Source: Acidovorax sp. NCPPB 4044
GTDB taxonomy: Bacteria; Pseudomonadota; Gammaproteobacteria; Burkholderiales; Burkholderiaceae_C
Reading direction: 5' to 3'
DNA: 24,394 bases
Assembly: GCF_028069655.1 (NCBI RefSeq)
Contig: NZ_JAMCOS010000003.1
Span: 1 to 24,394, forward strand
The position numbers and the translations under genes are program-made. Positions 8,131-24,394 of this stretch are shown here, in pieces. Every line of letters starts with the position of its first letter. The first letter of the stretch is position 1. The notes under the pieces are model-generated. The model was not told the origin of the DNA. It saw only the letters and a program-made list of their open reading frames with translations, and made no database searches.

Positions 8131-8136
8131 TAGAAT
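8131..8136 (+). promoter_or_regulatory. Weak candidate -10 box (TAGAAT) for the plus-strand island operon
   Basis: The 338-bp divergent gap between motA (7895) and the GT41 gene (8234) must hold the promoter of the plus-strand operon. The only sigma-70-like element seen is TAGAAT (five of six bases to TATAAT), with a poor TTTCCG 15 bases upstream. If it is used, transcription starts after the ATG at 8135, which favours the later start at 8234. No sigma-28 site was found on this strand. Confidence 0.2.
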
Positions 8137-8233
8137 GAAACAAACGGTGAGGCTGCTCGTGCCCGCCGCCTTCCTCAGCATGCACCGCCGCGCCATGCGC
8201 CGGCACGAAAGTGGCACATGTCGGCAGCAATCC

Positions 8234-9922
8234 ATGGCAGAAACTGACAACCAGGGCGTCGCACTCGGCAGCGGGACACAGCTGCTGCTGGAGCTGGTGA
8301 ACGGCGAGCAGTGCCTGGCCGCCAACAACCTGCCGGGCGCGCTCAAGCACTTCACGACCGCGCTGGCGCTGGACCCGCGCCGGCCCGACGCGTGGCTCCT
8401 TACAGGGCGCACCTTCCTCAAGATGGAGAACTGGGCCAACGCCATTCCGGCGCTGGAGACGGCCCTCACGCTGCAGCCGCAGATGGCCGACGCCCAGCAC
8501 GGGCTGTCGCTCGCGCTCTTCAACGTGGGGCGGCGCGAGGAGGCGCTGGCCCTGATCGATTCGGTGTGCCAGCGCGGCGGCAATTCCGCCATGTGGGTGA
8601 TGCGGGCCTTCCTGCACAGCCAGGCCGACCGCGACCCGGTACGCACGCTGCACGCCTACCAGGACTGGGGGCGCCGCTTCGCCGATCCGCTCACGCGCAA
8701 GGCCGCGCCATTCCCGAGGCTGGACCGCGATCCGCGCCGCAAACTGCGCATCGGCTACGTGACCGCCGATTTCCGGGAGCATTCGATCGCGTTCTTCATG
8801 CTGCCCGTGCTGCGCCACCACGATCCCGAGGCGGTCGAGGTGCACGTGTACTCGGGCGGCCACCGCGACGCCATCACCGACACCCTGCAGGCCTGCGTGC
8901 CCCACTGGCACGACATCCATGCGCTGAACGACGACGCGCTCCACCAGCTCATCCGGTCCCACGGCATCGACGTGCTGGTGGACCTGGCAGGCCACACCGC
9001 CGGCAACCGGCTGCTGGTGTTCGCCCGCCGGGCAGCGCCCGTGCAGGTCACCTGGCTCGGGTTCATGCTGCCGCTGGGAATGAAGGCCATGGACTACCGG
9101 CTCACCGACATCGGCATGACCCCGCCGGGGCAGGAGCCCCACTACAGCGAACGCCTGTTCCGCCTCGCCTGCATGGCGAGCTACGCGCCGCCGACCTACG
9201 CGCCCCTGTGCGAAGAGCCGCCGATGCTGCGCAACGGCCACCCCACGCTGATTTCGCTGAACAACTCGGCCAAGGTAACGGACGCGATGCTGGGCGTCTG
9301 GGCGCGCATCCTGCAGGCGCGGGCCGATGCGCGCCTCATCATCATGGTCAAGGAGCGCACGGCGGATGCCGCGCAGGCGGCGATGCAGTCCCGCGTGGAG
9401 GCGGCCGGCATGCCGCTGGACCGCGTGTTCGTGCTCCACCAGCAGCCGCTCAACCAGTTCATGGAACTGGGGCACATCGCGGATCTGGCACTCGACACCG
9501 CGCCGATCTCGGGCGGGACCACCACGCTGCACGCGCTGTGGATGGGGTTGCCGATCGTCGCGATGGACGCGGAGCGGGGCGTGGACGCCAGCACCGCGCG
9601 CACGCTCCAGGGCGTGGGCTATGCCGACTGGGTGGCCACCGACGAGGACGGATACGTCGCACGGGCGCTGGCGTTCCTGGACGACCCCGGCACCCTGGTC
9701 CGCCTGCGGCGCGAGACGCGCCAGCGCCTGTCGGCCTGCCCGCTCATGGACTACGCCAGCCGGACGGCCGAGCTCGAGAAAGCCTTCCGGCTCATGTGGC
9801 TGAACCATCTGGAGGGGCGTGACCGCTTCCTCGACGTGTTCGCCGACCCCGGCCCGGCGTTCGAACGCCTCGGGGCCGGCACCGGCGGCCAGGAACGCGC
9901 GCACGCCGCGCCCTCTGCATGA
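8234..9922 (+). CDS. TPR/SPINDLY-like O-glycosyltransferase (GT41), probable flagellin glycosyltransferase
   Basis: This looks like a bacterial relative of O-GlcNAc transferase, expected to attach a sugar from a nucleotide donor to Ser/Thr of protein in the cytoplasm. From the ATG at 8234 (MAETDNQ) it has 562 residues. About 20-150 are tetratricopeptide-like helices (ALKHFTTALALDPRRPDAW). The catalytic part follows with IGYVTADFREHSIAFF (H183, matching the family's conserved His), DLAGHTAGNRLLVFARRAAPVQVTWLG, SLNNSAKVT (K347) and the donor-site LDTAPISGGTTTLHALWMG. The frame is open back to 8135, but those 33 residues are not family-like and no Shine-Dalgarno settles the start. First gene of the plus operon. 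That flagellin is the target is inferred from position between motA and fliC. Confidence 0.88.
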   Translation: MAETDNQGVALGSGTQLLLELVNGEQCLAANNLPGALKHFTTALALDPRRPDAWLLTGRTFLKMENWANAIPALETALTLQPQMADAQHGLSLALFNVGRREEALALIDSVCQRGGNSAMWVMRAFLHSQADRDPVRTLHAYQDWGRRFADPLTRKAAPFPRLDRDPRRKLRIGYVTADFREHSIAFFMLPVLRHHDPEAVEVHVYSGGHRDAITDTLQACVPHWHDIHALNDDALHQLIRSHGIDVLVDLAGHTAGNRLLVFARRAAPVQVTWLGFMLPLGMKAMDYRLTDIGMTPPGQEPHYSERLFRLACMASYAPPTYAPLCEEPPMLRNGHPTLISLNNSAKVTDAMLGVWARILQARADARLIIMVKERTADAAQAAMQSRVEAAGMPLDRVFVLHQQPLNQFMELGHIADLALDTAPISGGTTTLHALWMGLPIVAMDAERGVDASTARTLQGVGYADWVATDEDGYVARALAFLDDPGTLVRLRRETRQRLSACPLMDYASRTAELEKAFRLMWLNHLEGRDRFLDVFADPGPAFERLGAGTGGQERAHAAPSA

Positions 9923-11076
9923 CGACGGCCGGCCCGCTGCCTCCTGACCCCATTCCCTTGCTGGTGCCGGACGTGCCGGCGCCCGAGGCGCTGCTACCGT
10001 ACCTGCAGCGCATGCATGCCGCGCGCTACTACTCCAACGGTGGCCCCCTGGTGCGCGAACTGGAAGAGCGCTTCGCCGCGCACTTCTGCGTGCCGGCGGA
10101 GCAGGTCGCGACCGTGGGCAGCGCCACGCTCGGCCTGGAACTGGTATTGCAGGCCCTGGGCCTGCGCGCGGGTGCCCGCGTGCTGGTGCCCACCTTCACC
10201 TTCGCCGCCACCGCGACGGCCGTGTTGCGCGCGGGGCATGTTCCCGTGCTGTGCGACGTGGACGCTGACAGCTGGCTGCTCACCCCGGACATCGCGCGGG
10301 CCGCGCTCGCGGCCGGGCCCCTCGATGCCGTCCTGCCCGTGGCCGCGCTCGGCATGCCCCACGACATGGCGCAGTGGCAGCGGTTCGAGCAGGAGACCGG
10401 GCTGCCCGTCGTGGTCGATGCGGCGGCAGGCTTCGGCAGCCAGCGGCTGGGAGACGCCGCCGGGACGCTCGTGTTCAGCCTCCATGCCACCAAATCGCTG
10501 CCGGCCGGTGAGGGCGGCTTCGTGGTCTCCACGCGCCCGGGCCTCGCTGCGCAGGTGCGGCGCCTGTCCAACTTCGGCATCAATCTGGATCCTGCCAGCC
10601 GCATGCCCATCGGCGCTCTGGCTGCGGTGGGCACGAACGCCAAGATGAGCGAACTGCATGCGGCCGTGGCGCTGGCATCGCTTGAGCGCTGGGACCAGGG
10701 GGCGCTGGAGCGGCGCGCGCTGCACCGGGAAATGCAGGGCGCGCTGGCACATGCTGCCGGGGGGCGGATCGCATGGCAGGCGGCCGGGCCGGCCGGCGGC
10801 ATCATGGCCCCGACGCTGCTGTGCGCGCGCATGCCCGATGCCCGCTCGCGCGAACGTCTCGAAGTGCTCTGTGCTCGCCAACACATCGCCACGCGGCGCT
10901 GGTACCAGCCCCTCATGCACCGCATGGAAGTGCTGATGTCTCGGTCCGCGGCCTTGCCGGCACCTCGGGCGGAGGCACTGGCCGATACCCTCGTGGGCCT
11001 GCCGTTCTTTCCGCACATGGACAGCGCGCAGAAGCTGCGCCTGGCCAATGTGATGGCGCAGGCAATGGGCAGGTGA
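9919..11076 (+). CDS. DegT/DnrJ/EryC1-family sugar-nucleotide aminotransferase
   Basis: Members of this PLP-dependent family transaminate keto-sugars on nucleotide carriers. The 385-residue product shows the fold-type I layout: a GSATLGLEL loop (about 67-75), PTFTFAATA, the aspartate pairing with the pyridine nitrogen in VVVDAAAGFG (D167) and the Schiff-base lysine in HATKSLPAGEGG (K192). The lysine is retained, so this is an aminotransferase rather than a dehydratase of the RfbH/ColD type. It overlaps the GT41 stop as ATGA. The substrate cannot be read from sequence. A 4-keto-6-deoxy or 4-keto-3,6-dideoxy sugar is likely from the neighbours. Confidence 0.88.
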   Translation: MTTAGPLPPDPIPLLVPDVPAPEALLPYLQRMHAARYYSNGGPLVRELEERFAAHFCVPAEQVATVGSATLGLELVLQALGLRAGARVLVPTFTFAATATAVLRAGHVPVLCDVDADSWLLTPDIARAALAAGPLDAVLPVAALGMPHDMAQWQRFEQETGLPVVVDAAAGFGSQRLGDAAGTLVFSLHATKSLPAGEGGFVVSTRPGLAAQVRRLSNFGINLDPASRMPIGALAAVGTNAKMSELHAAVALASLERWDQGALERRALHREMQGALAHAAGGRIAWQAAGPAGGIMAPTLLCARMPDARSRERLEVLCARQHIATRRWYQPLMHRMEVLMSRSAALPAPRAEALADTLVGLPFFPHMDSAQKLRLANVMAQAMGR

Positions 11077-11210
11077 TGGCGCAGGTTTTCATGGGTTCCG
11101 TTCGTGACAATGGCGCGCAATGCGGCCGCACGGTGCGGTGCCGGTGCGACCGGATTCCCGCGTGCCCGGTCCTCATCGCCGGCAGCAACACACCACCCGA
11201 ACACTGATCT
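11077..11210 (+). other. 134-bp gap inside the island operon
   Basis: This is the only sizeable gap in the plus-strand operon, between the aminotransferase stop and the Rieske start. It is GC-rich; no convincing promoter, hairpin with T-run or small gene was seen, and the Rieske ATG lacks a clear Shine-Dalgarno. It may mark a junction where the gene order was altered, or hold an unrecognised promoter. Confidence 0.3.
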
Positions 11211-12356
11211 ATGCCGACGAGCGTCCTTTCTCCCCACTTCTACCGTGACCCGGCGCACCACGCGCAAGAACTGCAGGGGTTGTTCCGCGATTGCTGGGTT
11301 TTCGTCTGCATGCGCTTCGAACTGGAGGGCCTGGTGCACCGGGGCCTGCGCGTGGGCGACGTGTCGCTGCTGGTGCAGTGCGACAGCCAGGGCCGGCCCC
11401 GCGCCTTCCTGAACGTCTGTTCGCACCGCCATGCCCAACTGTGCGAATCGGGCCTGCACCGGGGACCTGCGCGGTGCCCTTACCACGGCTGGGTGTACGA
11501 CCGGGAGGGGGTGCCCGTCGGCATCCCGTCGAAACAGTGCTTTCCCGAGGTGGTGGCCGAACCGACCCGTTTCCGGCTGCAGGAGTTCGCCTGCGAGGCG
11601 GTCGGGCAGTTCGTGTTCGTCCGTGTGTCGGAGACCGGGCCGTCGCTGCGCGACTATCTGGGGGGGCAGTACGCGTTTCTGGAGCGCGCGAGCCAGGGGA
11701 TGCGGGGCCTGCTGGATGAATTCCGGGAGCCTGTCGAGGCCAACTGGAAGATCGTGATCGAGAACGCGCTGGAGGGCTACCACGTGCCTGCCGTCCATGC
11801 GCGCACCTTCATGCAGATCGATGGCATGGATCGGGCCGAGGCGGCGCCGCGTTTCTTTCTGGAAGACCGCCTGCACAGCCACCTCGAGCACGCGGCCGAT
11901 GCGGACTGGGTGGCGCGGTTCGCTCGCATGGAAAGCAAGATCGGCCAGTGGCCGTGGCGCTTCGAGCACTACACCCACCACCACATCTTTCCGAACCTGA
12001 CCGTCACCTCGTTCATGGGATACAGCTTCCACGTGCAATCCTTCGAGCCCACCGCGGCCCGGCAAACCACCGTGCACTCACGGACCGTCGGGGTCGAGTT
12101 CACCGGCGCCAGGCCGGCCGGCGCGAAGATGATGGAACACATCCATGCCGACGGGCATGCCTTCACGCACAAGGTGTTCGCGGAGGACGGGGGTATCTGC
12201 GCGAAGGTCCAGGCGGGGGTGGACCAGGCGCGCCGCCCGGCCATCGTGGGCGCCGGGATCGAGGACCGCGTGGCGCATTTCCAGCAGGCCTATGCCCGGG
12301 CCCTGGAGGCCAGCGGGCCGCAGGCGGCGGAGCCCGCAAAGGTGCACGGGGCATGA
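11211..12356 (+). CDS. Rieske [2Fe-2S] non-heme iron oxygenase, alpha-subunit type
   Basis: Rieske oxygenases use O2 and electrons from a partner reductase to hydroxylate, demethylate or oxidise small molecules. The 381-residue product has the Rieske cluster ligands C70-S-H72 and C89-P-Y-H92, then the catalytic-domain motif [19 protein letters not shown] (about 178-196) with iron ligands H191 and H196. The C-terminal segment [15 protein letters not shown] (about 323-337) fits the ED...VQ.G pattern that usually supplies or neighbours the third ligand. The N-terminus ([20 protein letters not shown]) is typical, supporting the start. No beta subunit or reductase gene is nearby. Sitting between sugar genes and overlapping rfbF by ATGA, it probably acts on the glycan precursor or its acyl group; the substrate is unknown. 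Confidence 0.9.
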
Positions 12357-13123
12357 AGGCCATCATCCTGGCGGGAGGATTGGGCTCGCGGCTCAGCGAG
12401 GAAACGCAGCAAAAGCCCAAGCCCATGGTAGAGATCGGGGGGCGTCCGATCCTCTGGCACATCATGAAGATGTATTCGCACCATGGCATCAACGACTTCG
12501 TGGTGTGCTGCGGCTACAAGGGCTACGTGATCAAGGAATACTTCGCCAATTACTTCCTGCACATGTCGGACGTCACCTTCGACCTGGCGAACAACCGCAT
12601 GGACGTACATGAACGCTACGCCGAGCCGTGGCGCGTGACCCTGGTCGATACCGGCGACGTCACCCAGACGGGTGGCCGCCTGCGCAGGGTCCGTCGTTAT
12701 GTGAGCGAGGACGACGCCTTCTGCTTCACCTATGGCGATGGCGTGGGAGATATCGACATCGCGGAGCTTGTCCGGTTCCACAAGAGCCACGGCCGGCAGG
12801 CCACGCTCACCTCCACCCGCCAGCCCGGCCGCTTCGGAGCGCTGCAGATGGAAGACGACCGCGTGCTTTCGTTTCGCGAGAAGCCCGATGGCGGCGGTGG
12901 CATGGTGAACGGCGGCTTTTTCGTGCTGTCTCCGGCGGTGTTCGATCTGATCGAATCGGATGAAACGGTCTGGGAGGCGGCGCCGCTCGAAGCGCTGGCC
13001 CGGCAGGGCGAGTTGCGGGCCTTTCGGCACGAGGGATTCTGGCAACCCATGGATACGCTGCGCGACAAGAACTATCTGGAGCAACTCTGGCAGGGCGGCG
13101 CCGCTCCCTGGAAGTCATGGTGA
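12353..13123 (+). CDS. rfbF: Glucose-1-phosphate cytidylyltransferase
   Basis: RfbF makes CDP-glucose from CTP and glucose-1-phosphate, the first step to CDP-3,6-dideoxyhexoses. The 256-residue length matches the family. The N-terminal nucleotide-binding motif is [20 protein letters not shown] (residues 6-25). Typical family segments follow: [11 protein letters not shown], the metal-site [10 protein letters not shown] (D129) and [12 protein letters not shown] near the end. The frame is open much further upstream inside the Rieske gene, but the start at 12353 is set by the motif and by an ATGA overlap with the Rieske stop. It overlaps rfbG by 7 bp. Confidence 0.96.
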
Positions 13124-14217
13124 TCGCTGAAGGCGCGGTGCCGTCGGAACGGTTCTGGGCGGGGCGCAAGGTGTTCCTCACGGGCCATACCGGCTTCAAG
13201 GGAACCTGGTTGTCGCTCTGGCTGCAGCGCCTGGGGGCCAAGGTGACCGGATATGCACTGGAGCCGGATTCCACGCCCGCCATGTTCTCCTTGACTCGGG
13301 CGGCGGACGGAATGGATTCGCGCATCGGCGATGTGCGCGATGCCGCGCAACTCTCCGCCGTGCTGGCGGCAGCGGCGCCGGACGTGGTGATCCACATGGC
13401 CGCCCAGCCCCTGGTGCGAAAGTCTTATGCCGATCCGGTCGGCACCTATGCGACCAACGTCATGGGCACCGTGCACCTGCTGGAGGCGGTTCGGCATGTG
13501 CCATCGGTGCGTGCCGTGGTGGTGGTGACCAGCGACAAGTGCTACGAGAACCGCGAGTGGCTCTGGGGCTATCGGGAGGACGACGCGCTGGGAGGGTTCG
13601 ATCCCTACAGCAACAGCAAGGCCTGCACCGAGTTGGTGGCCGCCTGCTATCGCGATTCCTTCTTTCCGATAGGGCGTCACACGGAGCATGGCGTGGCCAT
13701 GGCCAGCGCGCGCGCGGGCAATGTGATCGGCGGAGGCGACTGGTCGAACGACCGCTTGATTCCGGATTTCCTGCGGGCCGCGCATCACCGCCAGCCGCTG
13801 GAGCTGCGCAATCCTTCCGCCGTGCGGCCCTGGCAGCATGTGCTGGAACCTTTGGCCGGCTATCTCCGGTTGGCGCAGGGACTGGTGGAGCAGGGCGTGG
13901 CACTGTCCGGGGCCTGGAATTTCGGCCCGTCCGATCAGGATGTGCAGAGCGTGGGAGACGTCGTCCGGCAACTGGCCGCATCGTGGCCAGAGCCGGTGGA
14001 CTGCCGCTTCGCCACCGAAGCGGGCGGCCCCCACGAGACGGGCATGCTCCGGCTGGACAGCAGCAAGGCGAGAAGCCTGCTGGGGTGGCACCCGCGCTGG
14101 CCGCTGGCGCAGACGATTTCCAGCATCGCGGGCTGGCATGCCGCCCACCACCGGGGCGAGAACATGCGCTCGATGACCGAGGGCCAGATCGCGTCCTATT
14201 GCGCCAGCGGGCGCTGA
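13117..14217 (+). CDS. rfbG: CDP-glucose 4,6-dehydratase
   Basis: RfbG converts CDP-glucose to CDP-4-keto-6-deoxyglucose. The 366-residue extended SDR has the NAD-binding loop TGHTGFKG (22-29), the active-site [11 protein letters not shown] (from T138) and the catalytic YSNSK (Y164, K168). KCYEN and the downstream [19 protein letters not shown] are characteristic of CDP-glucose dehydratases rather than dTDP-glucose ones. It sits between rfbF and rfbH, the same order as in Salmonella and Yersinia O-antigen clusters. Confidence 0.96.
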
Positions 14218-14229
14218 ACACATCTTTTT

Positions 14230-15555: not shown

Positions 15556-16116
15556 ATGCGTTTCGAAGAAAGTCCCGTGCCGGGCTGCTACCTGATCCAG
15601 CCCGAAGCGCATCCCGACGAGCGTGGGCGGTTTGTGAAGACCTTCAGCCGGGATGCATTCCTGGCCCGGGGGCTGGAATGCGACTGGGCTGAGAGCTTCT
15701 ACAGCGTCTCGCGGCGCGGGGTGCTGCGCGGGCTGCATTTCCAGTTGCCGCCGCACCACCATGCCAAGCTGGTGCACTGCAGCCATGGCCGTCTCTTCGA
15801 CGTGGTGGTCGATCTGCGCACCGGGTCGCCGACCCAGGGCCGTTTTGCCACCTTTGAGCTCGATGCCGAGCGCGGCAACCAGGTCTATATACCGGCCGGG
15901 TGTGCCCACGGTTGCTATGCGCTGACCGAAGGGGCGACCATCGTCTACCACGTCACCTCCGCCCACGCACCACAATATGACGCCGGCATCCGTTGGGACT
16001 CTGCCGGCATTCCCTGGCCCGACACCCAGCCCCTGCTGTCGGCGCGCGACCGCGAGCACCCCCGGCTGGGCGATTTCGACAGTCCCTTCGCGATGCCAGG
16101 GGGGGGCTCCGCATGA
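15556..16116 (+). CDS. RmlC-like sugar-nucleotide 3,5- or 5-epimerase
   Basis: RmlC-family cupins epimerise C3 and/or C5 of nucleotide 4-keto-sugars; AscE, the C5-epimerase for CDP-ascarylose, belongs to this family. The 186-residue product has the family layout: DERGRFVKTF, the base H61 in VLRGLHFQ, AHGCYAL, Y131 in IVYHVT and an aspartate in LSARD (D165) as dyad partner candidate. The second active-site tyrosine (Y138/Y139 in RmlC numbering) is replaced by H137. Following rfbF-G-H, its likely substrate is a CDP-4-keto-(3,6-di)deoxyhexose, which would lead to an L-sugar such as ascarylose. A dTDP substrate cannot be excluded. Confidence 0.87.
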   Translation: MRFEESPVPGCYLIQPEAHPDERGRFVKTFSRDAFLARGLECDWAESFYSVSRRGVLRGLHFQLPPHHHAKLVHCSHGRLFDVVVDLRTGSPTQGRFATFELDAERGNQVYIPAGCAHGCYALTEGATIVYHVTSAHAPQYDAGIRWDSAGIPWPDTQPLLSARDREHPRLGDFDSPFAMPGGGSA

Positions 16117-17922: not shown

Positions 17923-18965
17923 GCCTGCAACTGCTGAGCCCCTTCGTGGCCGAAGGGGCCTTCGGTCCCATGCCCAACCGTGTCGCGATGGCCGCCATGA
18001 CGCGTGGTTTTGCCGATGGGCGGCACCGCTGCACAGCCGACATCGCTGCCTATTACGCCCGGCGTGCCGCTGCCGGCGTATCGCTGATCCTGACCGAAGG
18101 CATCGTGGTCCATCCGTCGGCGGATGGCTACCGCAATGTGCCCCACCTGCAGAACGACGAGCAGGCCGACAGCTGGATACCGGCCATCCGGCAGGTACAT
18201 CAGGCCGGGGGGCGCATCGTGGCGCAACTGTGGCACTGCGGGCGCATCTCGCACCCGGACTTCACCGGTGGAGTGGCCCCGGTCAGTTCCACGGACCGGC
18301 CGGCGGCCGGCATCAATCGCCAGAACGGCCAGCCCTACGGGCAACCCCGGGCGCTGCATGCATCGGAGATGCCTGGCATCTACCGTCTTTTCGAGGAGGC
18401 CGCGCAGCGTGCCCTGGGTGCTGGCTTCGACGGCGTGCAGGTCCACATGGGGCATGGATACCTGTTCGACCAGTTTCTGGATGCGCGCATCAATGACCGG
18501 ACCGATGCCTATGGCGGGTCGGTCGAGAACCGCTGCCGCATCGTCCTGGAACTGGTGGAGCGCCTGTTGCCCGTCTGCGGCCCGCAGCGGCTCATGGTCC
18601 GCATCTCGCCCGCGCGGATGATGGGTGGGCTGTACGAGTGGCCTGACTTGGACGACCTGCTTGGCCATCTCATTCCCCGGCTCGACCGCCTGGGACTGCG
18701 GCAGCTGGACATCAGCTGTGCGGATGCGCCCTATGCCGAAACCTCCGGCAGGATCGTGCGCAAGGTGCGCCCCTTCTGGCCCCATTTCCTGATCGGGGGA
18801 GCGTCGCTGTCGGCCGAGGAGGCCGAGCACGAAATCCAGGAAGGACTGCTGGACATGGTCACGTGGGGCCGTGCGCTCCTTGCCAATCCGGACTTCGTGC
18901 GCAGGCTGGAGCGCGGAGAGGCCCTCGAACCCATGACGCCCGAGCGGCGTGCCGTGCTCTACTGA
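17919..18965 (+). CDS. Old Yellow Enzyme-family FMN oxidoreductase
   Basis: OYE-type flavoproteins reduce activated C=C bonds with NAD(P)H. The 348-residue TIM barrel shows NRVAMAAMTR near the N-terminus (T28 near the flavin), QLWHCGRISHP, the substrate-binding pair and proton donor H176-x-x-H179-G-Y181 followed by LFDQFLDARINDRTDAYGGS, and the C-terminal flavin-phosphate segment (LIGGASL ... GRALLANPDFVRRL). There is no extra FeS/FAD domain, so it is not of the dienoyl-CoA reductase type. It overlaps the preceding gene by ATGA and is the last gene of the plus operon. A role in sugar or acyl-group reduction is inferred from context only. Confidence 0.9.
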   Translation: MSLQLLSPFVAEGAFGPMPNRVAMAAMTRGFADGRHRCTADIAAYYARRAAAGVSLILTEGIVVHPSADGYRNVPHLQNDEQADSWIPAIRQVHQAGGRIVAQLWHCGRISHPDFTGGVAPVSSTDRPAAGINRQNGQPYGQPRALHASEMPGIYRLFEEAAQRALGAGFDGVQVHMGHGYLFDQFLDARINDRTDAYGGSVENRCRIVLELVERLLPVCGPQRLMVRISPARMMGGLYEWPDLDDLLGHLIPRLDRLGLRQLDISCADAPYAETSGRIVRKVRPFWPHFLIGGASLSAEEAEHEIQEGLLDMVTWGRALLANPDFVRRLERGEALEPMTPERRAVLY

Positions 18966-18981
18966 TCCGATCGGAGATCAG
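18962..18981. repeat. Imperfect palindrome spanning the two convergent stop codons
   Basis: CTGATC and GATCAG flank an eight-base centre containing CGATCG, so the two convergent operons end inside one near-palindrome. The left TGA is the OYE stop; the right TCA is the complement of the WavE-like gene's stop. There is no T-run on either side, so it does not qualify as a normal intrinsic terminator. Confidence 0.4.
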
Positions 18982-20225
18982 CCGACGCGGCCGCTGAAGA
19001 ATTCGGCGATCGTGAAGTCCTGGGCGCTTTCCTCGTGCGCCTGCCGCATGGCCGAGGGCAGATCGGCGTAGACCTCCCGCCACCATGCCGGAGTACCGAC
19101 GAACCCCTTGTTGAGGGTCAGATTGAACAGGGGAATGCTCTTGAGCGACAGGACATCGACGAACTCGTCCATCGGAAGCAGGTGGTTTGCCGCGAAACGG
19201 TAGCCATCGGCGAGGTCCCGGGCCGGCTCGGCCCATTGGCGCGCCAAGCTTTGCCACAGCAGGCATTCGACGGCGGCCTTCTGTATCTGCTGGTAGGGCT
19301 CTTCGGTCCTGTGCTGGATCTCGGATGCTCCGCGCATGTCTTCCGGAAGCGACCACAACTCGCACATGTCCTGGGTGCGGCTCACCAGAAAACGCTCTGA
19401 GAAGTGAAAGGGGATCTGCTTCCAGGATGAATGTGCCAGGAAGCCGAACTTCCCCGCGTTCCTGCTGCCATCGTCGAAGAGCTCTTCCACGGCGCGGTAG
19501 AGCGATCCGGTGACGACCGTATCGCTTCGCATGCGAACCGAGTACGGCACCCCGACCTCGGCCAGGTGCAGGGCTCCTGCCTTGGCGGAACGGATGATGG
19601 CATTGCGGCTGTCCACCATGTTCTGGGGTTGGGGGAGTGTGACCACGGCGTCCACCCACGGCCGGCAGGCATCGAGGCTGGCGGCGGACTGATGGTCCCA
19701 GGTGACAAAGCAGATATGGGCCTCGGGGCATGCCATGCGTTGCCAGGCCAGCGCCATCGGCGTGTAGGGAAAGACCGGACCTTGCACGAAGATGCCGAGC
19801 GAAGGTGTATGGGAGGGCGGTTTGCGCTGCAGGGACAGTCCTTCGAACACCCGCGAGAAAGCCTGGAGCTGGTCGATGTCTCCATGCCGGTTGCTGTGGG
19901 TGAGTGCCGGCACGCAGCGGTAATCGCCCCACAGGTTGCGGATCTGGTTCATGATTTCCGCCGAGTGCGCCGCGAAGATCACCAGGAGCACTTCGTCGTG
20001 CGGCTCTTCCATGAGCGCATCGGGGCTCCGCACGGGAATCCCGTGGATCTGCTTGCCTTGGTTCGCGGGGAATGGGCACACGGTGTATTCCACCGGAAGG
20101 CCGAGCAGCGGGTAGTAGTCCGTGAAGGCCTGCCCGGCGCCCCAGCCGATCAGGCGGACCTTGGCCGGATCGATTTCCGGATACTTCAAAAGAACGCGGT
20201 CGAGGCCGCCCCGAATCTTGGCCAT
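18978..20225 (-). CDS. WavE-type glycosyltransferase with N-terminal Rossmann-like domain
   Basis: A 415-residue protein with two parts. Residues about 22-100 form a small Rossmann-like domain (VRLIGWGAGQAF, then GKQIHGIPVRSPDAL). From about 143 onward it matches the WavE lipopolysaccharide-synthesis family: GIFVQGPVFPYTPMAL, ICFVTWDHQ, a run of conserved NxI residues and RMRSD (231-235), the probable donor/metal-binding motif. WavE proteins are thought to transfer sugars onto surface glycans. AGAGGG nine bases before the ATG supports the start. Last gene of the minus operon. It probably extends the flagellin glycan; an O-antigen role is possible. Confidence 0.75.
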   Translation of the reverse strand: MAKIRGGLDRVLLKYPEIDPAKVRLIGWGAGQAFTDYYPLLGLPVEYTVCPFPANQGKQIHGIPVRSPDALMEEPHDEVLLVIFAAHSAEIMNQIRNLWGDYRCVPALTHSNRHGDIDQLQAFSRVFEGLSLQRKPPSHTPSLGIFVQGPVFPYTPMALAWQRMACPEAHICFVTWDHQSAASLDACRPWVDAVVTLPQPQNMVDSRNAIIRSAKAGALHLAEVGVPYSVRMRSDTVVTGSLYRAVEELFDDGSRNAGKFGFLAHSSWKQIPFHFSERFLVSRTQDMCELWSLPEDMRGASEIQHRTEEPYQQIQKAAVECLLWQSLARQWAEPARDLADGYRFAANHLLPMDEFVDVLSLKSIPLFNLTLNKGFVGTPAWWREVYADLPSAMRQAHEESAQDFTIAEFFSGRVG

Positions 20226-20272
20226 CCTGCGGTGCCCTCTGGATAGTGGAGTGGAATGCCTCTGGAGAGGCC

Positions 20273-21511
20273 TCAGCGATAGAAATACAGGCAGGTATCC
20301 CAGCGGTCTTCGGTGTGGTGCTGCAGGCCGACCGAGTAGCCAGGGGCCACGGCATCCACCAGCGCCGGGATGTCCAGCAGATCGGTCGCGCGGTGATAGG
20401 CGGATATCGCCATCTTGGGCAGACCGGCGCGGATGGCCGCCTCGGCGCCCCGCAGCGCCGGTATTTCGAAGCCTTCGATGTCCATCTTGATGAACGTCGG
20501 GGGCGCGTCGATGAGGTCGTCGATGCGCCGGATGCTCACCGTCTCCAGTGGTGCATTCGGATCGACGGCGATGCTGCCGCCATGTCCCCCCAGGTGGTGG
20601 AACGGGGCTTGTGCATCGTGCTCGCCGACCGCGAAGGGATGCAGCGAAATCCTGGATGCGAGCGCGGTGCCCGCGTAGCCCTGCTGCAGCTTGCGCAGCA
20701 CTTCGAGGTTCAAGCGATCGGGCTCGATCATCCAGGAGTGCCCGATGCGGTCACCTGTCATGCCCAGCAGTCCGGTCGTGGATTCGCCGATGGAGGCTCC
20801 GCAATCGACGAACCTCTCGTCGTCCGACAAATTCAGCAGGCCCGAACGGAAATACAGCGTGGAGTAGGGCCTGGCCACGGTGAGGTACCACTCCGGATTG
20901 CAGCTCAGGTGAAACATGAGCACGCTGCGCAATGTGTTCACCGAATGCGGATCCGAAAACCGCCGCTCCAGCGCCTGGAATTCATCGAATCTGCTGCTGA
21001 TGGCCGGCGCCCAGTCCGCCGTGCGGTAGTCCACGCGATCGTTCATGCCGAAGAGCCGAGTGACCTGCTCGTGGTTCAGGTGGGCGATACCGTGGAGGGT
21101 GCAGAGCCGGTCGAAAAAGCGCCGGGAATAATCCGTCCGGCAGCAGTTGATGGCAATGATGTCCGGGTCGTGGCGCTGCATGGACAGGAAGCGTTCGGTG
21201 GAGATGATCTCCACGCCGTAGTAGTCCTCGCCGCTGGTGTATTTGAAGTCATCGACCACGGCCAGAGCCCAACCCTGGTCGCGGGTCGCGCGGATGAAGA
21301 CTTCCGCGAAGGTCTTCGTCCCCAGGAGGACGAAGCGCGTGCGGTCTCCTCGCCGCGCGAAGATTTCGCGTGCCTGGGAGGGGATGCAGAAATGCGGGTC
21401 GCGGCGGTAGAGCTCCAGCATGGCGAGCAGCGCTTCATCCCGTTGGAAGGGCGCCAGATTGATCCGGCTGACCAGGGCGTCGGGCGAGAAGGAAGGGGGC
21501 ATGGAGGCCAT
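20273..21511 (-). CDS. FkbM-family SAM-dependent methyltransferase with N-terminal extra domain
   Basis: FkbM enzymes O-methylate sugars and polyketides. The C-terminal half has the SAM-binding motif FVDCGASIGESTTGLL (234-249), an acidic residue after the second strand (MIEPDRLNLE) and the family signature FIKMDIEGFEIPALRGAE (340-357). Residues about 58-140 look like a separate Rossmann-like domain (RFVLLGTKTFAE ... VVDDFKYTSGEDYYGVEI). The frame opens upstream to a TTG at 21559, but the ATG at 21511, with GAAAG eight bases before it, fits better and gives 412 residues. It follows the acyltransferase after 44 bp. The likely role is O-methylation of a glycan sugar; the position methylated is unknown. 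Confidence 0.85.
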   Translation of the reverse strand: MASMPPSFSPDALVSRINLAPFQRDEALLAMLELYRRDPHFCIPSQAREIFARRGDRTRFVLLGTKTFAEVFIRATRDQGWALAVVDDFKYTSGEDYYGVEIISTERFLSMQRHDPDIIAINCCRTDYSRRFFDRLCTLHGIAHLNHEQVTRLFGMNDRVDYRTADWAPAISSRFDEFQALERRFSDPHSVNTLRSVLMFHLSCNPEWYLTVARPYSTLYFRSGLLNLSDDERFVDCGASIGESTTGLLGMTGDRIGHSWMIEPDRLNLEVLRKLQQGYAGTALASRISLHPFAVGEHDAQAPFHHLGGHGGSIAVDPNAPLETVSIRRIDDLIDAPPTFIKMDIEGFEIPALRGAEAAIRAGLPKMAISAYHRATDLLDIPALVDAVAPGYSVGLQHHTEDRWDTCLYFYR

Positions 21512-21555
21512 GTATGTCGCTTTCAGGCGGGCTTGCGTGCAGCGTGCCGGAGGCG

Positions 21556-22221
21556 TCAATTCCAGGCGAAGCGCCGGGCCGGATTGCCCATGATCGTGAT
21601 GTTCGGCGGTATCCGCCCGTACACCACGCTGCCCGCGCCGACCTTGACGTTGTCACCGATGACCGTGCCGCTGGTGATGACGCAATTGGGGTGGATCGAC
21701 ACGAAATTGCCGATCTTGGCGCCTCCCCCGATGGAGCAATGGCTGTTGATCTGGCACCAGTCGCCGATCTGGACGTCGTGCCCGATGACCGTGTATTCCT
21801 GGATGCAGACGAAATCTCCGATCTGTACATCGACCGAGATGCCGACCCGGGGCGCGACGATGCAGCCCCTGCCCAGCCGCGCATGCCGTGTCACGTTGGC
21901 CTGGGGGTGGACCACGGTGGCGAAATCCACGTCGTGGAGCGTGCGCAGCGTTTCGGTGTACTTGAGGCGGGCCGCGGGATCCCCCAGTGCCGCCATGAAC
22001 ACATCTCCGCTGACCGGGACATATGTGAGCGGGTCGCCCACGATGCCGACGGAGCGGTGCATGCCGTCCAGCGCGGAGGTCCGGGAGTCGAGAAAGCCCT
22101 TGGGACGGAACAGTGGGTTGTCGTCCTCGATGTAGGTCAACACCTCCCGGCCGAAGCCTCCCGCACCGACGATGAGCAGATTGCGGCGCGCGTCTGCAGG
22201 AGCATGAGAAGGCGAAGACAT
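21556..22221 (-). CDS. NeuD/PglD-family sugar acyltransferase
   Basis: These left-handed beta-helix enzymes acylate amino or hydroxyl groups of nucleotide sugars. The 221-residue product has an N-terminal Rossmann-like domain (NLLIVGAGGFGREVL, 14-28) and about six hexapeptide-repeat turns from residue 113 on (GCIVAP, SVDVQIGDFV, VIGHDVQIGD, SIGGGAKIG, TVIGDNVKVGAG), ending MGNPARRF. H148 in VIGHDVQIG matches the catalytic histidine of PglD. The ATG at 22221 is chosen because upstream sequence is unlike the family and lies in the SDR gene. Given the ACP/KAS genes just upstream, the donor may be an ACP- or CoA-bound short acyl rather than acetyl-CoA. Confidence 0.88.
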   Translation of the reverse strand: MSSPSHAPADARRNLLIVGAGGFGREVLTYIEDDNPLFRPKGFLDSRTSALDGMHRSVGIVGDPLTYVPVSGDVFMAALGDPAARLKYTETLRTLHDVDFATVVHPQANVTRHARLGRGCIVAPRVGISVDVQIGDFVCIQEYTVIGHDVQIGDWCQINSHCSIGGGAKIGNFVSIHPNCVITSGTVIGDNVKVGAGSVVYGRIPPNITIMGNPARRFAWN

Positions 22222-22231
22222 GGTGGCGCGC

Positions 22232-22999
22232 TCAGCTGATGGTGAGGCCGCCATCCATGACCAGCGTCGTGCCCGTGATCCACCGGCTGGCCTGGGACAG
22301 CAGAAAGACGGCGGCATTCGCCACGTCGTCGGGTTTGCCGAAACCCAGCGGATAGTTGCCGCGCTCCTGCTCCATCGAACCCACCAGCGTGGCGGTGGCG
22401 TCCAGCAGGGGGGTTTCGACCAGTGCGGGCGACAGGCAGTTGGCGCGGATGCCCCGCTTCACCACTTCCATCGCAAGGCAGCGGACCATCGCAATCAACG
22501 CCGCCTTGGTGCCGGAGTAGGCGGCCACGCCGGGTACGCCGATGTGCGCGGCGATCGAGGCGATGAACACCATCGAGCCGCCCGGCGCGACCAGGCTGCG
22601 CTTGAGCAGCGCCTGCGTCAGCAGCATGGGGGCGTCCACATTGATGCTCTGCACTTCCCGCAGATGCTGCTCGGTGATCATCCGCACGGGAGCCAGGCGG
22701 GAGATGCCCGCGCTGTGCACCACGCCGTTCAAGGGCGCCGTGCCGATCTGTTCGATCACCGCGGCGCGGTCCTGGGCCTGGGTCAGGTCTGCACGCAGCG
22801 TCTGGTGTTTTCCCTCGGGCGCTGCGGCCTGCAGTGACTCCAGCGTGCGGGCCAGGCGCTCTTCGTCCCGCCCCACGCCGATCACGTCCGCGCCCATGCG
22901 GGCACAGGCCATGGCAATGGAATGGCCGAGGCCCGATGTGGCACCCGTCACCAGGATGCGTTGGCCCGTGAGATGGAAGGGGGTGAGGGTGGTGTCCAT
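22232..22999 (-). CDS. FabG-like short-chain dehydrogenase/reductase
   Basis: A classical 255-residue SDR with the cofactor loop TGATSGLG (18-25), R44 suited to NADPH, HSAG (95-98), N120 and the catalytic set S148, Y161, K165 (YSGTK), ending in the usual GTTLVMDGG. Such enzymes include 3-oxoacyl-ACP reductases. Lying four bases after a KAS III gene and close to an ACP gene, reduction of a 3-oxoacyl-ACP to 3-hydroxyacyl-ACP is the most economical role. Reduction of a sugar ketone is the alternative. Confidence 0.86.
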   Translation of the reverse strand: MDTTLTPFHLTGQRILVTGATSGLGHSIAMACARMGADVIGVGRDEERLARTLESLQAAAPEGKHQTLRADLTQAQDRAAVIEQIGTAPLNGVVHSAGISRLAPVRMITEQHLREVQSINVDAPMLLTQALLKRSLVAPGGSMVFIASIAAHIGVPGVAAYSGTKAALIAMVRCLAMEVVKRGIRANCLSPALVETPLLDATATLVGSMEQERGNYPLGFGKPDDVANAAVFLLSQASRWITGTTLVMDGGLTIS

Positions 23000-23003
23000 G
23001 GCG

Positions 23004-24041
23004 TCAGGATTCCAGCATCGCGGGAAACCGTGCGCCTGCGATGTCCAGGATGCAGGTACCCCAGGACAGTCCGATGCCGAAGCCGCTCAGCAGCAGCTTG
23101 TGCGAACCGCTCTCCAGGGTTTCGTTCAATCGAGCGGTCATCGTCACCGGCAGCGTGGCGCCACTGGTGTTGCCGTAGTCGGCCAGCGTCGACGGAACCT
23201 TTTCCTGGGGAAGCGCCAGTTTCTTGCGGATGGTCTCGTTGATCATCCGGTTGGCCTGGTGGAAGATGAAGTAATCCACATCCTCCTTGGACACTCCCGC
23301 ATATTGCAGTGCGCGTTCCACGGAAGGCGGCACCCTCTGCGTCGAGAAACTGAGCACGGCAGGCCCGTCGAGGACGAGCCGGTCCGGCCACTGGAGTTCC
23401 CCGTTCTCGTCGCGCGTCGGAATGCTGTGGTGGAAGGCGTAGGGCTCCCGGTGCCCTCCTACCGGTTTGATGATCGCCTTGTATCCGCTGCCGTCGCTGT
23501 TGAGGTCGAAATACATCGGCGGCGCTGCAGGATCGAATTCCAGGGCGGTGGCCGTACCGGCATCGGAGAACAGAGGATCCTTTTCGCTCGCGGACCGGTC
23601 CCCCACCAGCAGCAGTCCCTTTTTCACGGTACCCGAGGCGATCATGCTGCCCAGGAGGTGCAGACCGAACGGGTAGCCCGAGCAACCCAGATTCACATCG
23701 AATGCGATGGTGCCGGAGGTCAGCTGCAGCCGGTCTTGCAGGATGATGGCGGTGGAGGGGATCGGGTAGTCGGGGGACTGCGTGACCACGATGAGCGCGT
23801 CCACCTCTTCACGGGCCCACTGCAGTTCTTCCAGCAGCTTCTCGGTGGCGTCCATTGCCAGGTCGGAGAAGCACTGCCAAGAGGCGCAGAGGCGGCGCTG
23901 CTGGATGCCGATGTTGCGCACCAGCCGCTCCCGTTCGGAGCGAATCTTCGGCGGGCAGTCTTCCAGATTGGAGATGACGCGCTTGGGAACGCAACTGGTC
24001 ATGCCCGCAAAGCGCACGTTGTGCAGGGTGGACAGGCCCAT
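23004..24041 (-). CDS. 3-oxoacyl-ACP synthase III-like (FabH family) condensing enzyme
   Basis: KAS III enzymes join an acyl-CoA starter with malonyl-ACP. The 345-residue thiolase-fold product retains the Cys-His-Asn triad: C120 in VNLGCSGYPFGL, H261 in FHQANRMINETI and N291 in YGNTSGATLPV. The C-terminal GFGIGLSWGTCIL also fits. It lies six bases after the ACP gene. KAS III genes next to flagellin and its glycosyltransferases are known from Pseudomonas glycosylation islands, where they are linked to acylated amino sugars such as modified viosamine. It is therefore probably dedicated to glycan acylation, not general fatty-acid synthesis. Confidence 0.92.
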   Translation of the reverse strand: MGLSTLHNVRFAGMTSCVPKRVISNLEDCPPKIRSERERLVRNIGIQQRRLCASWQCFSDLAMDATEKLLEELQWAREEVDALIVVTQSPDYPIPSTAIILQDRLQLTSGTIAFDVNLGCSGYPFGLHLLGSMIASGTVKKGLLLVGDRSASEKDPLFSDAGTATALEFDPAAPPMYFDLNSDGSGYKAIIKPVGGHREPYAFHHSIPTRDENGELQWPDRLVLDGPAVLSFSTQRVPPSVERALQYAGVSKEDVDYFIFHQANRMINETIRKKLALPQEKVPSTLADYGNTSGATLPVTMTARLNETLESGSHKLLLSGFGIGLSWGTCILDIAGARFPAMLES

Positions 24042-24047
24042 GGTGCG

Positions 24048-24278
24048 TTACCCCAGCAGCTTGTAGAGATCCGTGACCGTGGTGCAGTTCTTCAGGTCGT
24101 CGCCCACGATGGTCTTTCCGTATTCCACGTCGAACATCACGATGACGCCCAGTGCGGCAAGGGAATCCCATTCCGGCAGGGCGCGCAATTCGGTGTCGGG
24201 CGTCACTTCCACGGGTTCCTGGAAGTCGACGGCGGTCAGAAAGCTCTCGATGAACTGCTCGATGGAAGGCGAAGGCAT
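24048..24278 (-). CDS. Dedicated acyl carrier protein
   Basis: A 76-residue acidic protein with the phosphopantetheine site LPEWDSLAALGVI (D38-S39-L40), three predicted helices and the terminal TVTDLYKLLG. It differs from the housekeeping AcpP (which has a DSLD/E motif), as expected for a pathway-specific carrier. The ATG at 24278 has GGAG seven bases upstream. It is the first gene of the minus operon and begins only 15 bases after the T-run of the flagellin terminator, leaving no room for a conventional promoter in between. Confidence 0.92.
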   Translation of the reverse strand: MPSPSIEQFIESFLTAVDFQEPVEVTPDTELRALPEWDSLAALGVIVMFDVEYGKTIVGDDLKNCTTVTDLYKLLG

Positions 24279-24293
24279 GCGTACTCCAGAATG

Positions 24294-24332
24294 AAAAAAG
24301 CCGCTCGGGCCAAGATGGAAGGCCCGAACGGC
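24294..24332 (-). terminator. Rho-independent terminator of fliC
   Basis: On the minus strand GCCGTTCGGGCC, a nine-base loop and GGCCCGAGCGGC form a 12-bp stem with one G-U pair, followed by six T residues. It begins 25 bases after the flagellin stop. This is a textbook strong terminator for an abundantly transcribed gene. Confidence 0.9.
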
Positions 24333-24357
24333 AGTGTATTAGCCCCGGAAACCTTTT

Positions 24358-24394
24358 TCAGCCTTGGAGCAGCTTCAGAACCTGCTGAGGCAAT
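24358..24394 (-). CDS. fliC: Flagellin, last 11 codons (5' part outside window)
   Basis: The last 36 bases read on the minus strand as LPQQVLKLLQG followed by TGA. This is the conserved C-terminal helix end of bacterial flagellins (compare the VPQNVLSLL type ending in enterics), which packs in the D0 domain of the filament. The strong terminator directly after it also suits a highly expressed gene. Only 11 residues are visible, so the call rests on this short signature and the flagellar setting. Confidence 0.8.
   Translation of the reverse strand, partial: LPQQVLKLLQG

What the first reader, a model, noticed from the sequence alone, without database searches (positions are those of the whole stretch)
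8131..24394. A 16-kb flagellin glycosylation island of unusual composition between motA and fliC
Two convergent operons of 16 genes separate the motAB-cheYZ block from flagellin. They combine a protein O-glycosyltransferase, sugar-nucleotide synthesis, an acyl-making ACP/KAS III/SDR set, acyltransferase, methyltransferase, Rieske oxygenase and OYE. Flagellin islands with ACP and KAS III are known in Pseudomonas; I know of none that pairs them with CDP-3,6-dideoxyhexose genes plus a Rieske oxygenase and an OYE. The predicted product is an acylated, methylated deoxy-sugar glycan on flagellin that may be new.
Basis: partly seen in the sequence, partly recalled or inferred. Interest (0 to 1): 0.85.

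Follow-up and report, generated by a model that had tools for sequence, protein, structure and literature searches.

The report
Flagellin sugar island with Rieske oxygenase
Sixteen genes between the flagellar motor genes and a flagellin gene are predicted to build an acylated sugar chain and to attach it to flagellin, and a Rieske-type oxygenase, found beside the acyl-making genes in nine of nine such clusters sampled from the same bacterial order, likely oxidises the sugar's acyl group, a step that a search of open papers did not turn up.

Summary
Sixteen open genes in two convergent runs (10 on +, 6 on -) fill 8135-24278 between motA and the 3' end of a flagellin gene; the rest of that flagellin opens contig C1. 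The set splits into two modules. One is viosamine-type (aminotransferase, ACP, KAS III, SDR, VioB/NeuD acyltransferase), as in the Pseudomonas syringae viosamine island. The other is a CDP-3,6-dideoxyhexose module with an Old Yellow Enzyme. New here: the Rieske oxygenase goes with the acyl module. Outside the genus its relatives sit beside KAS III in 22 of 24 loci (the misses are short contigs). Conversely, 9 of 9 near KAS III islands among 399 genomes of the order hold a Rieske oxygenase, and the SDR count tracks the Rieske subtype. The OYE is in 0 of those 24 loci. In the genus the motA-fliC site is a cassette hotspot (9 KAS III islands, 7 other stretches, 1 empty site), and the flagellin's central domain changes with the cassette. 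Predicted product: a hydroxylated N-acyl amino-deoxyhexose plus a 3,6-dideoxyhexose on flagellin. No chemistry was tested; only 3 of the 9 order-level islands lie near flagellin. A new variant of a known kind.

The parts
7035..7895 (-). motA, left border of the cassette (motB, cheY, cheZ, flhB, flhA and flhF follow to 3)
   Evidence: MotA_N and MotA_ExbB; 91-99.7% identical in the 16 relatives
8135..9922 (+). TPR + GT41 O-glycosyltransferase, predicted to attach the first sugar to flagellin (FlmG-like architecture)
   Evidence: PF13844 9e-39 plus TPR; SPINDLY/OGT structures by sequence; near copies (74-100% identity) in 9 of 17 genomes of the genus
9919..11076 (+). DegT-family sugar aminotransferase (DesI/VioA-like), Lys192 kept
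   Evidence: PF01041 2.6e-65; best NCBIfam TIGR04427 1.9e-48, below its cut-off; residue
11211..12356 (+). Rieske oxygenase alpha subunit; cluster C70/H72/C89/H92, facial triad H191/H196/D326, bridging Glu188
   Evidence: PF00355, PF00848; residues; fold
12353..13123 (+). ddhA/rfbF, glucose-1-phosphate cytidylyltransferase
   Evidence: TIGR02623 above cut-off
13117..14217 (+). ddhB/rfbG, CDP-glucose 4,6-dehydratase
   Evidence: TIGR02622 above cut-off
14230..15546 (+). ddhC/rfbH, CDP-6-deoxyhexulose 3-dehydrase (E1); C194-x57-C252-x-C254-x7-C262 and HH in place of the Lys
   Evidence: NF011936 above cut-off; PDB 3bcx 1e-203; residues
15556..16116 (+). RmlC-like sugar epimerase (possible C5 epimerase of the CDP-sugar)
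   Evidence: PF00908 3e-55; TIGR01221 156.6 bits, cut-off 155.75
16113..16973 (+). SDR-family sugar epimerase/reductase
   Evidence: PF01370 1e-38; no close solved relative
16996..17922 (+). RmlD-like sugar reductase (start uncertain)
   Evidence: PF04321 7e-47; TIGR01214 below cut-off
17919..18965 (+). Old Yellow Enzyme-type ene-reductase; type I islands only
   Evidence: PF00724 3.6e-59 (read from 17925); 6 of 9 islands in the genus, 0 of 24 Rieske loci outside it
18978..20225 (-). WavE-like protein, predicted GT-A second glycosyltransferase
   Evidence: PF07507 8.6e-7; AlphaFold pLDDT 89 with weak matches to glycogenin and ABO transferases
20273..21511 (-). FkbM-type methyltransferase with an unassigned N-terminal part (start uncertain)
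   Evidence: TIGR01444 60 bits, cut-off 37.7
21556..22254 (-). NeuD/PglD/VioB-type hexapeptide acyltransferase, predicted to N-acylate the amino sugar
   Evidence: TIGR03570 above cut-off
22232..22999 (-). SDR, FabG/VioR-like ketoacyl reductase
   Evidence: PF13561 1.5e-52; YSGTK motif
23004..24041 (-). KAS III (VioS-like), Cys120
   Evidence: PF08541, PF08545; relatives
24048..24278 (-). dedicated acyl carrier protein (DSL serine)
   Evidence: PF00550, 20.9 bits, cut-off 20.8; 22 of 24 Rieske loci
24358..24394 (-). last codons of flagellin fliC1 (LPQQVLKLLQG, stop); the rest is at C1:1-

Best explanation
The 16 genes lie between motA and a flagellin gene and are predicted to make a short acylated deoxy-sugar chain that the TPR-GT41 transferase likely attaches to flagellin before export. 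Inferred steps: (1) chromosomal RmlA/RmlB supply dTDP-4-keto-6-deoxyglucose, which the DegT aminotransferase would convert to a 4-amino-4,6-dideoxyhexose (viosamine type). (2) KAS III and the SDR would build a short 3-hydroxyacyl group on the island's own ACP, and the NeuD/VioB-type enzyme would transfer it to the amino group. (3) The Rieske oxygenase would hydroxylate that acyl group, on the ACP or on the nucleotide sugar; it works like CMP-Neu5Ac hydroxylase, which hydroxylates an N-acyl group on a nucleotide sugar, but is not claimed to be a member of that family. Electrons would come from a ferredoxin-reductase encoded elsewhere. (4) DdhA/B/C plus the RmlC-like, SDR and RmlD-like enzymes would make a CDP-3,6-dideoxyhexose (ascarylose type is one option); the Old Yellow Enzyme would act here or on a late tailoring step. 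(5) The GT41 enzyme would attach the first sugar, the WavE-like GT-A enzyme a second, and FkbM would methylate. Shown directly: the genes, their families, the active-site residues looked for, the conserved order, the co-occurrence and the flagellin covariation. No reaction was observed.
For: Site: of 17 genomes of the genus, 9 have the near GT41 gene and the same 9 the near KAS III; motA is beside GT41 in all 9 and flagellin beside ACP in the 8 relatives. The window's own flagellin is cut by the contig end, and in G160 the two halves of the island lie on two contigs. Same module as the P. syringae viosamine island: vioA, acp, vioS, vioR, vioB (PMC3927599 sections 2.1 and 2.3). The chromosome holds rmlB, rmlD and rmlA, each above an NCBIfam cut-off. 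Rieske with the acyl module: of 27 Rieske loci in the named-genome scan, 24 lie outside the genus; KAS III in 22 of 24, ACP 22, SDR 23, NeuD 21, aminotransferase 21, GT41 21; ddhA/ddhB in 2, OYE in 0. Converse test: KAS III at E<=1e-80 in 9 of 399 genomes of the order, own included; all 9 have a Rieske oxygenase in the island. Those genomes carry 2-10 PF00848 genes each; 10 of the 34 hits lie in the islands. Subtype tracking: 12 of 12 loci with two SDRs carry a Rieske2-type enzyme at 33% identity or more, against 1 of 27 with one SDR (40 loci, L081 having none; one of the 12, L029, supplied the type-2 references). Flagellin covariation: central identity to the own FliC2 is 67-95% in the 8 island relatives and 69% for the own FliC1; 5-16% in the 7 of 8 other genomes whose complete flagellins were recovered (the eighth, G162, is cut by its contig end). 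On the rpoB tree the island label needs 4 changes, at least 3 forced.
Against: No chemistry, no mass data and no expression data. Flagellin lies within about 10 kb of KAS III in only 3 of the 9 order-level islands: G000 (over the contig break), G295 and G455. In the other 6 it is on another contig or about 500 kb away, so the module is not tied to flagellin everywhere. fliC is inside the fetched stretch in 9 of 24 Rieske loci. Of five distant KAS III hits at class level (36-42% identity), only one (L125) has a Rieske gene. No reductase is in the island; the genome has three FAD_binding_6 proteins, none assigned to it. DdhD, the usual E1 partner, is absent from the island. Flagellin covariation may be plain linkage of neighbours. 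The 33% limit in the subtype count was set after seeing the identities, and related loci are not independent cases. The Rieske model is moderate (best 79 pLDDT, five models 79 to 43). The Rieske gene lies in the + run of this window, next to the aminotransferase and ddhA rather than in the acyl run.
Confidence: 0.6

Rival explanations
1. The Rieske oxygenase acts on the sugar ring or on a finished glycan residue (for example making a diol or removing an O- or N-methyl group), not on the acyl chain; the FkbM and SDR enzymes handle its product.
For: Nearest folds are quaternary-ammonium demethylases and aromatic dioxygenases; bridging Glu188 is invariant in the 18 aligned relatives, a trait recalled for carnitine and betaine oxygenases. 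An FkbM homolog is in 15 of the 24 loci.
Against: The Rieske subtype tracks the acyl-module SDR count (12 of 12 against 1 of 27), and NeuD is often the gene next to it. FkbM is missing from 9 of 24 loci.
Confidence: 0.3
2. The island makes O-antigen or another surface polysaccharide, and its place beside flagellin is accidental.
For: ddhABC, WavE and RmlC/D-like enzymes are classical LPS genes; 6 of 9 order-level islands are not near flagellin.
Against: In the genus the island sits at motA-fliC (motA beside GT41 in 9 of 9, flagellin beside ACP in 8 of 8 relatives); the flagellin centre follows the cassette; a TPR-GT41 protein glycosyltransferase is in 21 of 24 Rieske loci; no Pfam match in the island's 16 proteins is to a flippase, polymerase or ligase.
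Confidence: 0.1
3. Two separate glycans are made by one locus: the acyl-viosamine module and the CDP-3,6-dideoxyhexose module each decorate flagellin on their own.
For: The modules separate in evolution: ddhA/ddhB are in only 2 of 24 Rieske loci outside the genus. There are two candidate transferases (GT41 and WavE-like). In G160 the ddh genes seem broken off while the acyl run stays beside flagellin.
Against: In the genus both modules are together in 8 of 8 islands read across their whole length.
Confidence: 0.25
4. Already known: this is the locus behind the published Acidovorax avenae flagellin glycans of 2,150 and 1,600 Da.
For: Same genus group; flagellin of A. avenae K1 and N1141 is glycosylated (review PMC8364246). 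G156, with a type I island, has a contig of the same length (5,625,582) as the one behind P0149, which a source names Paracidovorax avenae.
Against: The K1 glycosylation sites as recalled (Ser178, Ser183, Ser212, Thr351) fit the 492-aa flagellins G151_1 and G155_0, which go with the other cassette, and none of the 13 flagellins of island genomes.
Confidence: 0.1

Closest known systems
Viosamine island of Pseudomonas syringae pv. tabaci 6605 (vioA, vioM, vioT, vioS, vioB, vioR, acp)
   Same: Aminotransferase, ACP, KAS III, ketoacyl reductase, NeuD-type acyltransferase and methyltransferase; flagellin target (PMC3927599 sections 2.1 and 2.3 read)
   Different: None of its seven listed genes is an oxygenase or CDP-sugar gene; its VioT (1,173 aa) is replaced here by GT41 and WavE-like transferases; the methyltransferase here is FkbM type
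FlmG of Caulobacter crescentus
   Same: A 596-residue N-terminal TPR plus C-terminal GT-B protein that binds and glycosylates flagellin (PMC7591256 passages); the protein here is 595 aa with TPR and GT41
   Different: FlmG uses pseudaminic acid; no pseudaminic acid pathway model passed its cut-off among the best NCBIfam rows for the island proteins
Flagellin glycosylation islands of Enterobacteriaceae, type 23 (CDP-4-keto-6-deoxyglucose)
   Same: CDP-hexose genes in a flagellin island; other types there carry GT41, DegT, NeuD, FkbM, ACP or FabG (PMC4875605 passages)
   Different: The strings oxygenase, Rieske, hydroxylase and synthase III do not occur in that paper's main text
Yersinia/Salmonella ddhABCD 3,6-dideoxyhexose pathway
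   Same: DdhA, DdhB and DdhC with the [2Fe-2S] cysteines and the His in place of the Lys
   Different: No DdhD in the island; flagellar rather than O-antigen locus; epimerase and reductase set not assigned
CMP-Neu5Ac hydroxylase (CMAH)
   Same: Works like: hydroxylates an N-acyl group of a nucleotide sugar (PMC8227644 passages); its Rieske nature is recalled
   Different: No homology test was made; the protein here has the ring-hydroxylating alpha-subunit architecture (PF00355 + PF00848)

Membership tests
Flagellin glycosylation island | Lies in the flagellar locus next to a flagellin gene | tested here: met
   Window end plus C1 start; relatives
Flagellin glycosylation island | Encodes a protein O-glycosyltransferase and nucleotide-sugar genes | tested here: met
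   GT41/TPR; TIGR02623, TIGR02622 and NF011936 above cut-offs
Flagellin glycosylation island | Flagellin carries the glycan made by the locus | not testable with these tools
   Needs mass spectrometry
Viosamine island (P. syringae) | vioA, acp, vioS, vioR and vioB equivalents | tested here: met
   Family hits against the gene list of PMC3927599; no direct alignment to the P. syringae proteins was made
Viosamine island (P. syringae) | VioT-type transferase of about 1,170 aa | tested here: not met
   No frame of that size among the island's genes; GT41 595 aa and WavE-like 415 aa instead
Viosamine island (P. syringae) | Product is N-(3-hydroxybutyryl)-2-O-methyl-viosamine | not testable with these tools
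   No chemistry
CDP-3,6-dideoxyhexose pathway | DdhA, DdhB and DdhC with E1 residues | tested here: met
CDP-3,6-dideoxyhexose pathway | DdhD (E3) reductase in the cluster | tested here: not met
   None in the island; a 357-aa ferredoxin/FAD/NAD reductase is at C1:3016990
CDP-3,6-dideoxyhexose pathway | Final epimerase/reductase fixing which dideoxyhexose is made | tested here: inconclusive
   RmlC-, SDR- and RmlD-like enzymes; RmlC-like just over its cut-off, RmlD-like below; no close solved relative of the SDR
Rieske ring-hydroxylating oxygenase alpha subunit | CxH...CxxH cluster and 2-His-1-carboxylate iron site | tested here: met
   C70, H72, C89, H92, H191, H196, D326; fold matches; the role of D326 is assigned from recalled family pattern
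Rieske ring-hydroxylating oxygenase alpha subunit | Cognate reductase | tested here: inconclusive
   None in the island; three candidates in the genome
FlmG-type flagellin glycosyltransferase | N-terminal TPR and C-terminal GT-B/GT41 domain | tested here: met
   PMC7591256
FlmG-type flagellin glycosyltransferase | Binds and modifies flagellin | not testable with these tools
   Needs interaction and glycosylation assays
CMP-Neu5Ac hydroxylase | Sequence or fold homology to CMAH | not tested
   Used only as a works-like comparison

The most novel reading that the evidence does not exclude
A clade of Rieske oxygenases, coupled to an ACP-KAS III-SDR-NeuD module across Burkholderiales, oxidises the N-acyl group of a nucleotide-activated amino sugar that is then put on flagellin or another protein: a bacterial counterpart in chemistry to sialic-acid N-acyl hydroxylation, and the first oxygenase-tailored flagellin glycan.
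Probability: 0.4. Interest if true: 0.78.

Novelty: new variant of a known kind. Interest (0 to 1): 0.6.

Why it matters
Flagellin glycans affect motility, filament assembly and how hosts sense bacteria, yet the enzymology behind them is still poorly defined (PMC12645811 passage). Here an oxygenase family that source databases name aromatic-ring dioxygenase or choline monooxygenase turns up as a regular part of a sugar-acylation module. If the reading is right, such names need correcting, and it predicts a specific mass change of 16 Da on one residue. The motA-fliC cassette hotspot, where flagellin and glycan genes change together over 17 species, offers a natural system for asking how glycosyltransferases match their flagellin.

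Tried and rejected
Linking the island to the published A. avenae K1/N1141 glycans (2,150 and 1,600 Da; review PMC8364246). Eight of 216 residue combinations came within 6 Da of 2150/4, but the recalled K1 sites fit 492-aa flagellins of the other cassette, so the mass match was dropped.

OYE as electron donor or constant partner of the Rieske enzyme, or as a stand-in for DdhD: rejected, because the OYE is in 0 of 24 Rieske loci and is missing from the 2 type II islands read across their whole length, which still have ddhABC. Those carry two other Rieske oxygenases, and the one annotated (L029) has an amine-oxidase-type flavoprotein at the corresponding place.

A flagellar sigma-28 site upstream of the GT41 gene: the best site (8001, minus) faces motA; nothing comparable was found for the GT41 or ACP genes.

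The first rpoB tree was wrong because loci lay on both strands; it was redone in one orientation.

Xanthomonas has a KAS III at 76% identity (P0229) and a WavE relative (P0139). A flagellin island of ten genes in X. oryzae is recalled, but its paper is not held, and no genome search was left to see whether it holds a Rieske gene. This is the main gap in the novelty claim. The Burkholderia cenocepacia system paper is not held either. 'Not found in print' rests on the ten paper searches only. In one search ten papers hold Rieske, flagellin and glycosylation; I saw their listing, plus passages of one of them (PMC8227644), and no link.

Full report
What is there. The window is contig C3 of a 5.32-Mb genome in four contigs. 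Nearest by rpoB is G154, whose island contig has the same length as a Paracidovorax konjaci contig (69,927 bases), so the genome is a Paracidovorax close to that species (inference). The first 7.9 kb are flhF-flhA-flhB-cheZ-cheY-motB-motA. Then come ten genes on + (8135-18965) and six on - (24278-18978), meeting 12 bases apart. The last 37 bases encode the end of a flagellin read on -, and contig C1 opens with the rest of a flagellin read on - that lacks that end. fliC2 at C1:1597 ends differently (LPQGVLSLLR), so it is not the source of the window's tail; in the relatives the flagellin beside ACP ends in LPQQVLKLLQG, as here.

Families and residues. Three CDP-sugar enzymes pass their curated cut-offs. 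RfbH keeps the cysteine pattern C-x57-C-x-C-x7-C and a His pair where aminotransferases have Lys; the DegT aminotransferase keeps its Lys192; KAS III keeps Cys120; the Rieske protein keeps its cluster and iron ligands (the roles of these residues are recalled family knowledge). Thus the two DegT-fold proteins likely do different jobs: one is an aminotransferase and the other a 3-dehydrase.

The genus. Over 17 genomes held for the genus, a near GT41 gene (74-100%) is in 9, and the same 9 have the near KAS III (78-100%). Three of the others have GT41 proteins at 29-31% only, and five have none at E<=1e-20. Six (type I, this one included) keep the whole set in order, Rieske and OYE included. Three (type II: G158, G163, G160) have the acyl run with two SDRs and, beside NeuD, other Rieske oxygenases: two of them in G158 and G163, at least one in G160, where the stretch read ends. 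G158 and G163, read across their whole length, keep ddhABC, the RmlC-like enzyme and the SDR epimerase and lack OYE, the RmlD-like enzyme and the window-type Rieske. In G160 motA-GT41-aminotransferase-ddhA lie on one contig, where ddhB breaks off after 161 of 366 residues and unrelated genes follow with no run of N, while flagellin and the acyl run lie on another; rearrangement or mis-assembly cannot be told apart.

The other eight genomes have motA 91-96% identical, yet different contents next to it. Seven carry another stretch of about 5-9 kb between motA and flagellin, each with a DegT-type hit; only that of G151 was annotated (aminotransferase, ATP-grasp enzyme, methyltransferase, a 1,464-aa GT2 protein), and that of G162 reaches its contig end. 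One (G157) has flagellin about 0.4 kb from motA, an empty site. Flagellins of island genomes are 407-409 aa (own FliC1 is cut at 397) with centres 67-95% identical to the own FliC2; complete flagellins of seven of the eight others are 281-284 or 492-494 aa with centres 5-16% identical. On an rpoB tree the island label needs four changes, at least three forced; 49 of 500 label shuffles are as low, so the label follows the tree only loosely. G152 and G156, with the island, lie in one supported clade with G151, G153 and G155, without it. Cassette and flagellin therefore seem to be exchanged together. This fits a functional match but also plain linkage.

The Rieske oxygenase goes with the acyl module. 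It is rare: in 150 genomes drawn from the family only the own genome has one at E<=1e-60. A family alignment (A1) was used to scan one genome per species in GTDB 220: 27 loci, three of them Paracidovorax and 24 others. Counted in all 24, with a length threshold: KAS III 22, ACP 22, SDR 23, NeuD 21, aminotransferase 21, GT41 21, FkbM 15, flagellin 9, motA 6, ddhA and ddhB 2, OYE 0, RmlC-like 0, RmlD-like 0, WavE-like 0. The ddhC query also hits other DegT proteins, so its 15 of 24 is not evidence for the pathway. The two loci without KAS III are contigs of 8.0 and 4.9 kb. KAS III and Rieske midpoints lie 1.9-9.5 kb apart, on the same strand in 21 of 22.

The converse test does not start from the Rieske gene. 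KAS III at E<=1e-80 was found in 9 of 399 genomes of the order, own included. The eight others were fetched and all eight have a Rieske oxygenase in the island: two of the window's type, five of type 2a, and one (G259, KAS III only 45% identical) with two distant ones at 26-27%. Two of the eight (G295, G278) have contigs of the same length as the Delftia tsuruhatensis and Methylovorus mays loci of the first scan, so they are probably the same genomes and not new cases. The nine genomes have 2-10 PF00848 proteins each, 34 in all, of which 10 lie in the islands. Relatedness reduces the number of independent cases further (G189/G235 and G427/G455 share genera). Beyond the order, five distant KAS III hits (36-42%) were checked and one has a Rieske gene, between SDR and NeuD.

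Subtype. Among 40 loci, twelve have two SDRs, and all twelve carry a Rieske2-type enzyme at 33% identity or more (L029, one of them, supplied the type-2 references). Of 27 with one SDR, one does (L074). L081 has no SDR hit and is left out. Two single-SDR loci (L071, L073) have a second Rieske at 29%, below the limit, which I set after seeing the values. SDR and NeuD determine the acyl group in the viosamine pathway (PMC3927599 section 2.3), so this tracking is the main reason to place the oxygenase on the acyl group rather than on the 3,6-dideoxyhexose.

How it likely works. See the best explanation. dTDP-4-keto-6-deoxyglucose can come from rmlA/rmlB at C1:3.90 Mb. Both the Rieske enzyme and RfbH need an outside reductase (recalled); none is in the island, and the genome has three FAD_binding_6 proteins. 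One of them (C1:4.625 Mb) is next to another Rieske oxygenase; a 357-aa ferredoxin-type reductase at C1:3.017 Mb is the best general donor. The WavE-like protein is modelled well (pLDDT 89), and its top fold matches are GT-A transferases (glycogenin, ABO), though weak (TM up to 0.45 by target).

Flagellin as target. For: place, covariation, GT41 with TPR as in FlmG (PMC7591256 passages), known flagellin glycosylation in A. avenae (review PMC8364246 passages). Against: away from the genus the module is often not near flagellin (3 of 9 order-level islands with the own; 9 of 24 Rieske loci). The target could be another protein there. The published A. avenae K1 glycan probably belongs to the other cassette: the recalled sites 178/183/212/351 read Ser/Ser/Ser/Thr in G151_1 and G155_0 only, among 26 flagellins tested.

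Novelty. Acyl-viosamine islands, GT41-type flagellin transferases and CDP-hexose genes in flagellin islands are known. My searches of the held library turned up no paper that links a Rieske oxygenase with flagellin glycosylation (listings seen). The X. oryzae and B. cenocepacia island papers are not held, so prior mention there cannot be excluded. Hence: new variant of a known kind.

Noticed in passing
L134:1519-1927 (G157): One congener has flagellin about 0.4 kb from motA with no cassette and short flagellins (281-284 aa): an empty site.
   Followed up: partly
L130:10785-18471 (G151): Alternative cassette between flagellin and motA: aminotransferase, ATP-grasp enzyme, methyltransferase and a 1,464-aa GT2/methyltransferase protein; goes with 492-aa flagellins.
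   Followed up: partly
L031:5144-5644 and L111 (G160): The island of this relative is in two places: ddhB breaks off inside one contig and unrelated chromosomal genes follow, while the acyl run and flagellin lie on another contig.
   Followed up: partly
L029:8975-16529 (G158): Type II island: amine-oxidase-type flavoprotein, two FkbM proteins, two further hexapeptide acyltransferase-like proteins and two Rieske oxygenases.
   Followed up: partly
L108 and L125: Distant KAS III loci with a second KAS III hit and Rieske genes among KAS III, SDR and NeuD, perhaps for other acyl chains.
   Followed up: no
L078:11143-13044: 633-aa protein with a C-terminal methyltransferase domain next to the Rieske gene in a Comamonas MAG.
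   Followed up: no
G000:C2:16032-16421 (L003): A third Flagellin_N protein (437-aa frame) on contig C2; a similar weaker hit recurs in the island-bearing relatives; possibly the hook-associated protein FlgL (inference).
   Followed up: no
window 8001 (-): Sigma-28-like site (12 of 16 positions) facing motA, kept at 12 of 16 in three type I relatives and 11 of 16 in a fourth, not found at that level in the fifth.
   Followed up: partly
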